NCBI RefSeq assembly: GCF_011742555.1
Contig: NZ_JAAQQR010000004.1
Span: 1-64,000, forward strand
Length of the DNA stretch: 64,000 nt
DNA from: Luteibacter jiangsuensis
Lineage (GTDB): Bacteria > Pseudomonadota > Gammaproteobacteria > Xanthomonadales > Rhodanobacteraceae
Direction of reading: 5' to 3'
Shown here: piece after piece, positions 31,049 to 36,807 of the stretch
How positions within the stretch are numbered: position 1 is the first letter of the stretch
Layout: each line of letters begins with the position of its first letter
Notes under the pieces: model-generated
What the model was told of the DNA's origin: nothing
What the model saw: only the letters and a program-made list of their open reading frames with translations
The model's database searches: none
Translations under genes and position numbers: made by a program

Positions 31049-31711
31049 GTGGAGGGCGCTCGCGCAGTTCGCCCTCCCGCCCACGTCGCTCTTCGCGAGT
31101 CCACGCGTGCCGCGCACGACGCGGCCGAGGCATCGCCGCTCATGCAACGGCTGCTCGCCGGCGCATTGGATGAAACGGCATACCGGGCATTGCTGGCGGC
31201 CCAGTGGCATCTGCTGAGCGAATGGGAAGCCGAGCGGTCGGCGTGGCTGGCAGGCATCGGTGTCGCGCAGGGCTGGCACTACGCCTCCCGCGTCGAGGCG
31301 CTGGCCCGGGACCTGGAGGATCTGTCCCACCCGGCTTGCGACAACACCCTCGTAGGAGCGCGCCCTGCGCGTGACATCTTTTCGCGGAAAGCGGCAGGTC
31401 CTGTGGCTCACGGCCCCAACAGCTGTCGCGCGCAGGGCGCGCTCCTACAGGGCTGGGGTGAGCTTTACGTCATCGAAGGCTCGGCGCTCGGCGGCCGCGT
31501 CATCGTGAAACGGCTCCGCGAACGGTTCCCTGCCCTGGCCCACCGTTTTTACGCCATCGGCGAAAACACCAAAGCGCCCTGGCACCGCTTCCAGGGGTTG
31601 CTCGACCGCATGCTGGCCGAGCCGGCCGCGCTGCGCAGCGCCGTGGAAGGCGCACTGCGCATGTTTGCGCGCTACCAACAGACGTTAAAGGATCACGCCT
31701 CGCATGTCTGA
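31049..31711 (+). CDS. bphO: Biliverdin-producing heme oxygenase with in-frame repeat insertion
   Basis: The protein has 220 residues from a GTG directly after the previous stop. The heme-binding His23 sits in STRAAHDAAE, and the distal GELYVIEGSALGG motif marks the BphO family. It opens heme to biliverdin, the chromophore of the phytochrome encoded next, with which it overlaps by 8 bp. Residues about 102-134 (VGARPARDIFSRK...) are encoded by a palindromic repeat at 31352-31448. They fall in the loop before the distal helix, so the protein is longer than usual by about 33 residues. Whether it folds normally is not known. Confidence 0.88.
   Translation: MEGARAVRPPAHVALRESTRAAHDAAEASPLMQRLLAGALDETAYRALLAAQWHLLSEWEAERSAWLAGIGVAQGWHYASRVEALARDLEDLSHPACDNTLVGARPARDIFSRKAAGPVAHGPNSCRAQGALLQGWGELYVIEGSALGGRVIVKRLRERFPALAHRFYAIGENTKAPWHRFQGLLDRMLAEPAALRSAVEGALRMFARYQQTLKDHASHV
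31352..31448. repeat. GTAGGAG-class inverted repeat element, copy A (inside bphO)
   Basis: The 97-bp element opens GTAGGAGCGCGCCCTGCGCG and closes with its near inverse, ending GCGCTCCTAC. It is related to the copies at 36701, 39345, 40886 and 52126. Its core shares GGCTCACGGCCCCAA-like sequence with the copy at 40886, and both are 97 bp, forming one subtype. This copy lies inside the heme oxygenase gene and keeps the reading frame open. Confidence 0.9.
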
Positions 31712-33215
31712 GCTTCCCGACCTCACCCTCTGCGATCGCGAGCCGATCCACATTCCCGGCTCGATCCAGCCGCATGGCGTCCTGCTCGTGGTCGACGCCG
31801 CCACGAAAACCGTCCTGCAGGTCAGCGAGAATATCGGCGACGTGACCGGGGTCGACGTGGAAACCGCGCTCGACGCGCCCCTGCACGAAATCGTCGAACT
31901 GCCCTCCGGCCTGTTCGACGGCACGCGGCCGGCGCATGACGCATGGGCTCCCGTGGCGCTCCCGCATGGGAGCGCCGGTGGCCCGTGGTACGCGGCCGTG
32001 CACGCCTACGACACTCGCTGGCTGATCGAGATCGAAAGGCGCGACGTCCATTTCGACGACGATCCCCGGCAGGTGGCGCGCGAGCTCGCACGGCTGATGG
32101 AAACAGACCTCCAGGTCGAGCGGGCCGGCGCGCGCGTGGCGCGAACCATCCGCAGCCTGCTGGGCTACGACCGGGTCATGGTCTATCGCTTCGACCGCGA
32201 CTGGCACGGTGAGATCATCGCCGAAGCGCGGCGCGACGACCTGGAGGCCTACCTAGGGCTGCACTACCCCTCCACGGACATCCCCGCGCAGGCCCGCGCG
32301 CTCTACCTGCGCAACCGCGTGCGTCAGATCAGCGACTGCAAATACGTGCCGGCGCGCATCCTGCCCGCTTACGACCCCGTCACCGCCGAAGCCACCGATC
32401 TCAGCGACGTGTCGCTCCGCAGCGTGTCGCCCGTGCACCTGGAATACCTGGGCAACATGGGCGTCACGGGAACCCTGGTGGCATCGATCATCGTGGGCGG
32501 CACGTTGTGGGGCCTCATTTCCTGCCACCACTACAGTCCGTTCTTCGCCGATCACCGCATGCGCGAGGCCGCCGATGGCATCGCTACCGCGTTCGCGGCG
32601 CGCGTGGCCGCCATCGAGGAACTCGGCGAGATCGAACTGGAAAGCGCCCTGCTGACGGTGCGCGAGAAGCTGATCACGGCCTTCGACGAGAGCGACCGGA
32701 TCGACCCCGCACTCCTTGGCCGCGTCGCGCCGGAACTGCTCGACATGGTGGATGCGGACGGCATCGCGATCGCCGCCGACGGACGCATGGTCCGGCACGG
32801 CGAACTACCCGGCGACACGGTACTGTCCCGTATTCTCGACAGGGCGAAAGACGCGCCGGCCACGTTCGCGGACATGGTGCACACGGACGACATCGGCGCA
32901 TGGTGCGCGGATCTGGCGGATCCCGCCGTGACCCAGATGGCCGCGGGCCTCGTGTACCTCCCGCTGCCCATCGGGCAGGACGCCGCGATCCTGTGGACCC
33001 GCACCGAGCAAGTGCGCCAGGTGCGCTGGGGCGGCAATCCTTCTCTCGCCAAGCTCGAGACGATCCCCGGGGCCCGGCTGTCGCCCCGGCAGAGTTTCGA
33101 AACCTGGCAGGAAACCGTTCGCGGACGCTCGCGTCCGTGGTCGCGCCAGCACCTCGAGTCGGCGCTCGCGTTGCGCTCGATGATCCGCGGACCGACGGAC
33201 GCCTCCGCCGACTGA
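31704..33215 (+). CDS. bphP: Bacteriophytochrome photosensory core (PAS-GAF-PHY), no output domain
   Basis: The protein has 503 residues. The biliverdin-attaching Cys10 is present in LTLCDREPIHIPGSIQPHG. The GAF domain shows YRFDRDWHGEIIAEA, the PSTDIPAQAR motif and SPVHLEYLGNMGV. The PHY domain ends with LSPRQSFETWQE, the PRxSF tongue motif. Thus PAS, GAF and PHY are complete. The protein stops about 20 residues later, with no histidine kinase, GGDEF or PAS output. It should sense red/far-red light. A signalling partner must be provided by another protein or be lost. The upstream heme oxygenase supplies the chromophore. Confidence 0.93.
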   Translation: MSELPDLTLCDREPIHIPGSIQPHGVLLVVDAATKTVLQVSENIGDVTGVDVETALDAPLHEIVELPSGLFDGTRPAHDAWAPVALPHGSAGGPWYAAVHAYDTRWLIEIERRDVHFDDDPRQVARELARLMETDLQVERAGARVARTIRSLLGYDRVMVYRFDRDWHGEIIAEARRDDLEAYLGLHYPSTDIPAQARALYLRNRVRQISDCKYVPARILPAYDPVTAEATDLSDVSLRSVSPVHLEYLGNMGVTGTLVASIIVGGTLWGLISCHHYSPFFADHRMREAADGIATAFAARVAAIEELGEIELESALLTVREKLITAFDESDRIDPALLGRVAPELLDMVDADGIAIAADGRMVRHGELPGDTVLSRILDRAKDAPATFADMVHTDDIGAWCADLADPAVTQMAAGLVYLPLPIGQDAAILWTRTEQVRQVRWGGNPSLAKLETIPGARLSPRQSFETWQETVRGRSRPWSRQHLESALALRSMIRGPTDASAD

Positions 33216-35872: not shown

Positions 35873-36733
35873 ATGCTGTCGGCCATGGAGTCCTTCGATG
35901 CTAGCACGCAGGCGGCCGCTGTCCTCGATCATTTTGCCGCACCCATCGGGCGTGCGAAAGGCCCCTTCGTGCTCGGCATCTCGGGATTGCAGGGCAGTGG
36001 CAAGAGCACCCTTGCGGCCAGTCTCGTCGCCGCGGCGCGCGCACGTGGGTGGGACGCCGTCTCGCTGTCGCTGGACGACGTGTACCTGACCCGCGCCGAG
36101 CGCGAAGCGCTTGCGATGGACGTTCACCCCCTGCTGCGCACCCGCGGCGTACCCGGCACGCACGACCTGGCGCTGCTCGCTTCCACCCTGGACAACCTGG
36201 GCAAGGCATCGCCGGACGCGCCGGTGCGCCTCCCGCGTTTCGACAAGGGCCGTGATGAGCGCCAGGAGCCGTCGTCGTGGCCTTCCGTGGTACGGCCGCC
36301 GCGACTGGTGGTGTTCGAGGGGTGGTGCCTGGGCGTGGAGCCTGCCGCGGATACCTCCGAGCTGGTCGAGCCAGCCAATGCACTGGAACGTGTCGAGGAC
36401 GCCGACGGCCGGTGGCGGCGATGGGTCGACGAGCGTCTCGCCGACTACCTCCCCATCTGGGCTCGCATCGACGCCCTCGTGCTTCTTCAGGCGCCGTCGT
36501 GGGACATCGTGGCGACGTGGCGCGACGAGGCGGAGGAGCCCTTGCGCCGACGCGGGGATCCGGCAGCGATGGACGCTGTCGCGCTGTCCCGCTTCCTGCA
36601 GCACTACGAGCGGATCAGCCGCAGGGCGTTGGAGACATTGGGCGCGAAAGTGGACCTGGTAATCCACCTGGATGCGCACCGCCACGCCATCGCCTCCGGG
36701 GTAGGAGTGCGCCCTGCGCGCGACATCTTTTGA
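35873..36733 (+). CDS. D-glycerate 3-kinase-like P-loop kinase
   Basis: The protein has 286 residues. The P-loop GLQGSGKST near residue 40 is followed by SLSLDDVYLTRAEREAL and HPLLRTRGVPGTHD, features of plant-type glycerate 3-kinase (GLYK). LVVFEGWCLGVEP gives the Walker-B-like region. The likely reaction is ATP-dependent phosphorylation of D-glycerate. The last residues (VGVRPARDIF) and the TGA stop are encoded by the palindromic repeat at 36701-36807, so the natural C-terminus was replaced or extended. Confidence 0.87.
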   Translation: MLSAMESFDASTQAAAVLDHFAAPIGRAKGPFVLGISGLQGSGKSTLAASLVAAARARGWDAVSLSLDDVYLTRAEREALAMDVHPLLRTRGVPGTHDLALLASTLDNLGKASPDAPVRLPRFDKGRDERQEPSSWPSVVRPPRLVVFEGWCLGVEPAADTSELVEPANALERVEDADGRWRRWVDERLADYLPIWARIDALVLLQAPSWDIVATWRDEAEEPLRRRGDPAAMDAVALSRFLQHYERISRRALETLGAKVDLVIHLDAHRHAIASGVGVRPARDIF

Positions 36734-36807
36734 GGCCGAGAATGGGAGCTGGCGCGCTGATTTTCAGATTGGCGCGAAGAGCTGTCGCGCGCAGGGCGCG
36801 CTCCTAC
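36701..36807. repeat. GTAGGAG-class inverted repeat element, copy B
   Basis: This 107-bp copy belongs to the second subtype, with GGGAGCTGGCGCGC in the core, also seen at 39345 and 52126 (the last with GGAGCTGG). It fills the gap between the convergent kinase and epimerase genes and supplies the stop codon of both: TGA at 36731-36733 for the kinase, and TAG (complement of 36804-36806) for the epimerase. Confidence 0.9.

What the first reader, a model, noticed from the sequence alone, without database searches (positions are those of the whole stretch)
31352..31448. Palindromic repeat inserted in frame inside the heme oxygenase gene
A 97-bp GTAGGAG...CTCCTAC element, otherwise intergenic in this window, lies inside bphO and is translated as about 33 residues (102-134) in a loop just before the distal heme helix. 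The frame stays open and the catalytic motifs on both sides are intact. This is a natural case of repeat-driven protein extension.
Basis: partly seen in the sequence, partly recalled or inferred. Interest (0 to 1): 0.72.

Follow-up and report, generated by a model that had tools for sequence, protein, structure and literature searches.

The report
Mobile repeats rewriting a protein loop
In Luteibacter bacteria a short mobile DNA repeat that otherwise sits between genes lives inside the gene for a heme-cutting enzyme, is predicted to be translated as a loop of the protein, and differs from species to species in step with the repeats of each genome.

Summary
A 97-bp inverted pair of GTAG-type REP sequences (a REPIN) lies at 31352-31448 inside bphO and is read in frame as residues 102-134. 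It is not one odd insertion. Of 23 Luteibacter genomes searched, 21 have bphO, and in 17 of the 21 the same loop, just before the conserved GELYVIEGS motif, carries REP-derived sequence (codon-shuffle p at most 0.015; 2 of the 17 borderline). None of 14 outgroup genes from five other genera does. Loops are 28-74 residues in Luteibacter; the spacing is constant in the outgroups. The REP type in the loop tracks the REPs of its own genome (0 of 20,000 permutations as good; 10 species have an exact 20-nt copy elsewhere in a 28-104 kb sample). Sister species often differ in type. Between the window's species and its nearest relative the REPIN is inverted. Elsewhere in 1.6 Mb of samples, 1 of 263 REPs lies inside a gene, near its end. 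Most likely one ancestral insertion made this loop a tolerated REP address whose occupant is then replaced, flipped, eroded or lost while selection keeps the frame. In-frame REPs are known; a genus-wide, renewed in-gene site was not found in the papers searched. No protein or expression data.

The parts
31049..31711 (+). bphO, heme oxygenase gene (220 aa, GTG start directly after the upstream stop codon)
   Evidence: the upstream gene abuts the bphO start in 17 of the 20 genomes where the pair was compared (in G000 and G089 the home-made caller chose a later start; G123 gave -1)
31292..31453 (+). variable loop, residues 82-135, between the conserved SR and WGELYVIEGS
31352..31448 (+). REPIN, 97 bp, read in frame as residues 102-134
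   Evidence: RNA of 31340-31460 folds at -81.6 kcal/mol, z -8.07
31352..31375 (+). left REP arm; first 20 nt identical to 4 other REPs in the sample of the same genome
31425..31448 (-). right REP arm (inverted copy)
31457..31495 (+). GELYVIEGSALGG, conserved motif after the loop (distal heme helix by recall of the heme oxygenase family)
31704..33215 (+). bphP-like phytochrome gene overlapping bphO by 8 bp
   Evidence: same 8-bp overlap in 18 of 21 genomes

Best explanation
A REPIN entered the linker before the distal helix of BphO in an ancestor within Luteibacter (inferred). Because that linker tolerates almost any residues and REPINs are open in many reading phases, the gene survived and the place became a lasting REP address (inferred). 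Since then the occupant has been rewritten in lineage after lineage so that it resembles the REPs of that genome (shown as a pattern), by copying from other REPs, either RAYT-linked replication or recombination between REPs (mechanism inferred). It can also flip, since the two arms are inverted repeats (one pair of species shows opposite orientations), and it decays or is lost where the genome has few REPs (shown as a pattern). Selection on the enzyme keeps the frame open; the REP-coded residues themselves are not conserved. The loop therefore behaves like an intergenic spacer that happens to be translated.
For: REP-derived sequence in the loop of 17 of 21 Luteibacter bphO and 0 of 14 outgroups; the rest of the gene shows no close REP match (4-6 mismatches in 20 in all 21). 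Loops 28-74 aa in Luteibacter, constant spacing in 14 outgroups. Match of loop to own-genome REPs: 0 of 20,000 permutations as good, own genome ranked first in 10 of 20, one of these a tie; exact 20-nt own copy in 10 species. Different REP types in sister species on the bphP tree: G120 against G124, G117 against G130, G076 against G127. G000 and G089 REPINs in opposite orientation: spacer identity 67% direct, 91% inverted, and the G000 bphO copy, inverted, is the best match to the G089 copy other than itself in both genomes (90%, next 82%). REPs elsewhere are rarely in genes: 1 of 193, 0 of 70, and 0 of 39 other full-length REPINs recognised in 40 fetched loci of G000, which speaks for one founding event rather than many. 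Low REP load goes with absence from the loop (4 genomes without against 17 with, one-sided exact p 0.002, GTAG heads only). A RAYT family match in 22 of 23 genomes: one match in 20, two in G129, three in G130. The occupant also changes at intergenic sites: at 2 of 4 compared G000/G089 sites the REPIN class differs.
Against: Codon phase of the left arm differs between species (0 and 1), which a single insertion explains only with later small indels. Seven of the 17 have no exact own copy in the sample (2-4 mismatches): G112, G101, G118, G033, G130, G128, G120. In G101 the loop REP is exact to a type of other species but 4 mismatches from its own sample; the loop REP of G033 has no other copy within 1 mismatch in its genome. 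G118 and G128 are borderline (p 0.010, 0.015). Own genome is not ranked first in 10 of 20. G076 and G127 each hold both of the REP types in which their loops differ, so that pair is weak evidence of replacement. Related species share REP types and samples differ in size, so the permutation result overstates independence.
Confidence: 0.6

Rival explanations
1. Repeated independent insertions: the loop is simply the most tolerant landing place in the genome and REPINs enter it anew in each lineage, with old copies lost.
For: Different phases and positions of the left arm between species; different REP classes in sister species; G121, nested among REP bearers on the bphP tree, has a clean 28-aa loop, so absence or loss occurs.
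Against: If REPINs entered genes often, other tolerant loops should show them: 1 of 193 and 0 of 70 non-bphO REPs are inside called genes and 0 of 39 in the G000 census. Five species with at least two REP types (G076, G127, G122, G125, G119) share the same junction and phase after the DL codons.
Confidence: 0.25
2. The element is kept because it does something: the strong hairpin in the bphO-bphP mRNA slows ribosomes or alters decay and so tunes biliverdin supply against phytochrome.
For: RNA hairpin -81.6 kcal/mol, z -8.07; loop RNA z below -3 against 100 codon shuffles in 12 of 21 Luteibacter genes; occupancy 15 of 21 by the strict pattern, slightly above the highest of 51 conserved gene pairs (11 of 16).
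Against: z above -1 in 8 of 21: G047, G126, G121, G123 (no REP) and G112, G129, G033, G128 (eroded or single REPs); absence follows genome REP load; a REPIN folds like this wherever it sits (inference).
Confidence: 0.1
3. Convergent GC-rich low-complexity coding sequence or assembly error that only looks like REPs.
For: The loop in G033 is partly a tandem repeat, and its palindrome could come from codons for ADLSA (inference).
Against: Exact 20-nt matches to own-genome REPs in 10 species, where codon shuffles give at best 3 mismatches; several single-contig assemblies.
Confidence: 0.02

Closest known systems
Intragenic GTAG REPs (BMC Genomics 2013, PMC3733652; passages read)
   Same: GTAG-tagged REPs and dimers inside ORFs, more than half encoding 20-30 residues; different REPs in recB of X. 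campestris and X. oryzae at about the same site; the authors suggest that loops or linkers may tolerate them.
   Different: The passages seen do not describe one gene occupied across a genus with the occupant tracking each genome's REP type, nor an inverted copy between sister species. Its supplementary gene list was not seen.
REPIN/RAYT system (PMC3116915: start of abstract in a listing, and one reference-list passage; PMC8049555: passages; general description recalled)
   Same: Inverted REP pair of about 100 bp, many copies, RAYT gene in the genome.
   Different: Described as extragenic; here one copy is coding.
REP 'orthoswitch' (BMC Genomics 2013, PMC3686654; passages read)
   Same: Orthologous RAYTs with different REP classes in related strains; new variants spread and may partly replace old ones.
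   Different: In that model old REPs stay and decay; here the occupant of one fixed, in-frame site appears to change type.
Rickettsia palindromic elements, RPE (mentioned in PMC3733652; otherwise recalled)
   Same: Palindromic repeats inserted in frame in ORFs.
   Different: CGTC-tagged in that paper, not GTAG; many genes rather than one persistent site.

Membership tests
REPIN (GTAG class) | GTAG (or GTGG) head followed by a short imperfect palindrome | tested here: met
REPIN (GTAG class) | two REPs in inverted orientation with a short spacer | tested here: met
   97 bp
REPIN (GTAG class) | many copies in the genome | tested here: met
   86 matches counting both strands; 127 GTAG REPs by pattern
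REPIN (GTAG class) | RAYT transposase gene in the genome | tested here: met
   G000:C4:25722-26132, 135.2 bits, over the cut-off of NF047646
REPIN (GTAG class) | extragenic position | tested here: not met
   inside bphO, while 39 of 39 other full-length copies recognised in fetched loci of G000 are intergenic. I count this as usual rather than defining, since intragenic REPs are published
REPIN (GTAG class) | mobilised by the RAYT | not testable with these tools
   needs experiment
Heme oxygenase (PF01126) | family profile over the cut-off | tested here: met
   67.3 bits against 23, residues 13-214; no NCBIfam family matched at E 0.001
Heme oxygenase (PF01126) | proximal His region and distal-helix glycines intact | tested here: met
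   H23 and GELYVIEGSALGG conserved in the alignments; their roles are recalled
Heme oxygenase (PF01126) | enzyme activity with the loop present | not testable with these tools
   no biochemical data

The most novel reading that the evidence does not exclude
The bphO loop is a living REP site: the RAYT/REP system goes on rewriting and inverting it within populations, so that Luteibacter cells carry alternative BphO loops and alternative mRNA hairpins, a repeat-driven diversification of a protein segment.
Probability: 0.15. Interest if true: 0.82.

Novelty: new variant of a known kind. Interest (0 to 1): 0.62.

Why it matters
How REPs spread and change was given as unknown in a 2013 paper (PMC3686654, passage), and as far as I recall is still not settled. 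A REP site locked inside a conserved gene gives a frame-checked record of what happens at one address through a genus: replacement by the current REP type, inversion, decay, loss. It also points to a protein whose loop is supplied by the genome's mobile repeats, and it warns that a hypervariable loop in an alignment can be a repeat rather than an adaptation.

Tried and rejected
Structure: one AlphaFold2 job on window BphO with two relatives gave mean pLDDT 54.9 and pTM 0.48. The stretches under 50 include 91-108 and 118-151 (loop and beyond), but the model is too poor to place the loop, so its position rests on sequence motifs; no fold search was run. Solved structures: only weak matches (best E 0.0018). 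Direction of the flip between G000 and G089: not resolved; the spacers of G101, G130 and G117 do not clearly favour either orientation. Whether only arms, not spacers, are swapped in the G117/G130/G101 group was considered and left open. G112: its loop matches 80-bp-class REPINs, better in the G000 sample (score 56) than in its own (43).

Literature: Luteibacter with repetitive extragenic palindromic (listing: two papers, neither on this by title), heme oxygenase with bacteriophytochrome or Luteibacter (97 papers, none of the 15 listed mentions Luteibacter), REPIN with coding sequence, REPIN with inversion showed no report of this site; one further search was left unused, and subscription papers and preprints are not held. 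PMC12306157 (RepRanger, passages) has no occurrence of Luteibacter or 'intragenic'. Supplement look-ups are capped at 0 here and were not tried, so the gene list of PMC3733652 was not checked for bphO.

Scripts: one search read minus-strand loci in the wrong orientation and was redone; ended in error and were redone. An earlier count said own genome first in 11 of 20; the output gives 10. Limits: genes are called by a home-made codon-score caller (82% and 86% coding); a REP counts as inside a gene only if the gene reaches 15 bp beyond it on both sides; samples centre on bphO except the 400 kb; one genome per species; one search counts GTAG heads only; the G000 census rests on capped searches, and 4 of its 40 loci (L177, L184, L187, L213) gave no REPIN of 90 bp or more by the pattern.

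Full report
What is there. bphO (31049-31711) encodes a 220-aa heme oxygenase and overlaps a phytochrome gene by 8 bp. At 31352-31448 it contains a 97-bp inverted pair of GTAG REPs, read in frame as residues 102-134. Eleven GTAGGAG heads in the window against 2.41 expected, none of 100 shuffles as many, and 86 matches in the genome counting both strands, make chance untenable. As RNA the stretch folds at -81.6 kcal/mol, z -8.07.

The same loop in relatives. 21 of 23 Luteibacter genomes have a bphO match (none in G010 and G062). The gene is alignable on both sides of one variable stretch, between SR..L..DL and WGELYVIEGS. Its length is 28-74 aa in the 21. For comparison 15 loci of other genera were examined: the 14 non-Luteibacter loci returned, the best-scoring of 47 non-Luteibacter genomes with a match among 398 genomes searched, and G034. 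One (G425) was dropped because the motif search failed. In the remaining 14, from five genera and only two of them from the same family, the two flanking motifs are a constant 97-98 residues apart; more distant relatives were not looked at.

REP content. Compared with all 61 distinct REPs found outside bphO, 17 of 21 Luteibacter loops are closer to a REP than codon-shuffled versions of themselves (15 at p 0.005, the floor with 200 shuffles; G118 0.010, G128 0.015; uncorrected). G047, G126, G121 and G123 are not, nor is any of 14 outgroups (lowest p 0.139), and the rest of the gene has no match closer than 4 mismatches in 20 in any of the 21. G123 is an 80%-complete assembly whose contig ends in a fold-back just past the loop.

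The occupant tracks its genome. REP types differ greatly between species. Scored against 28-104 kb samples of each genome with bphO masked, the loop's own genome is ranked first in 10 of 20 (G123 left out, its sample is too short; G076 ties with G000), and none of 20,000 permutations reaches the summed own score; the same holds for 16 loops with G047, G126, G121 and G128 dropped as well. Ten species have an exact 20-nt copy of a loop REP elsewhere in their own sample; the other 7 of the 17 are 2-4 mismatches away. On a bphP tree (17 genomes with near-full genes), sister species hold different types: G120 and G124 (support 100/100), G117 and G130 (90/87), G076 and G127 (90/85). The last pair is weak, since both types occur in both genomes. 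Exceptions: G101 carries a type exact to other species but 4 mismatches from its own sample, and the REP of G033 has no second copy within 1 mismatch in its genome.

A flipped copy. G000 and G089 are sisters (100/100). Their bphO REPINs have the same length, but the spacer matches well only after reverse-complementing (67% direct, 91% inverted). Over both whole genomes the best match of the G089 copy other than itself is the G000 bphO copy, inverted (90%; next 82%). In-place flipping keeps the frame open in both. Of 65 sampled REPINs 54 have a phase open in both orientations, and 224 of 390 phase and orientation choices are open. So REPINs are moderately easy to translate, and I read the open frame in all 20 full-length genes as selection on the enzyme.

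REPs otherwise rarely lie in genes. In 1.235 Mb around bphO from 21 genomes with 1074 called genes, 24 strict REPs lie in bphO (15 of 21 genomes), 1 in another gene, 16 bp from its end, and 192 are not inside a gene. In 400 kb from six genomes away from bphO, 0 of 70 are inside genes. Around matches to this REPIN in G000, 40 loci were fetched and 39 full-length copies recognised: 39 of 39 are intergenic, while the flank test used there detects the bphO frame. Among 51 gene pairs adjacent in at least 6 genomes, 39 have REPs in under a tenth of genomes; six reach 60-69%, five of them convergent (highest 11 of 16). bphO at 15 of 21 is about as occupied as the best intergenic sites. Intergenic sites also change occupant: of 4 G000/G089 sites compared, 2 hold different REPIN classes, and one G076/G127 site looks inverted.

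REP load. By GTAG pattern the four genomes without REP in the loop have 60, 30, 16 and 1 REPs; the 17 with have 14-1489 (one-sided exact p 0.002). Species are not independent and GTGG heads were not counted. A RAYT family match is found in 22 of 23 genomes, not in the incomplete G123.

Interpretation. The most economical account is one founding REPIN in an ancestor within the genus, followed by renewal in place. Rarity of REPs in any other sampled gene speaks against frequent independent insertions, and five species with at least two REP types share the same junction and phase. Different phases in other species and the lack of strain data keep independent insertion alive. A role for the hairpin is possible: loop RNA z is below -3 in 12 of 21 species, but it is above -1 in 8 of 21, which argues that it is not essential. 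Which enzyme does the rewriting is not shown, and no data here show the protein or its activity.

What is known. In-frame GTAG REPs, including different REPs at about the same site of recB in two Xanthomonas species, are published (PMC3733652, passages), and switching of a RAYT's cognate REPs is published as orthoswitch (PMC3686654, passages). The library searches made here (listings, with passages of five papers) showed no report of a REP site in bphO. I therefore call it a new variant of a known kind.

Noticed in passing
31704-33215 and bphP of other species: The phytochrome ends soon after the PHY region here and in several species (498-525 aa) but is 613-628 aa in others; the Pfam scan of the window copy shows only PAS_2, GAF and PHY.
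   Followed up: no
36701-36807: A REPIN overlaps the last 33 bp of a called gene, so the repeat seems to supply the end of a protein.
   Followed up: no
L043 (G033) bphO loop: Loop partly made of a short tandem repeat (PTAMSQ), and its palindrome could also arise from native codons for ADLSA.
   Followed up: partly
L013 (G076) and L053 (G120) bphO loops: Several REP heads in tandem, as if units had been duplicated inside the gene.
   Followed up: no
L061 (G119) and L062 (G125): A second, weaker match to the heme oxygenase query in a 195-aa open frame in two genomes.
   Followed up: no
L103 (G123): Contig ends in a fold-back copy of the bphO loop region, probably an assembly artefact.
   Followed up: yes
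convergent gene pairs near bphO, e.g. spacers at window 40864 and 23638: The same convergent spacers hold REPs in 9-11 of 15-16 species, at some sites with different REPIN classes, so site persistence with changing occupant may be general.
   Followed up: partly
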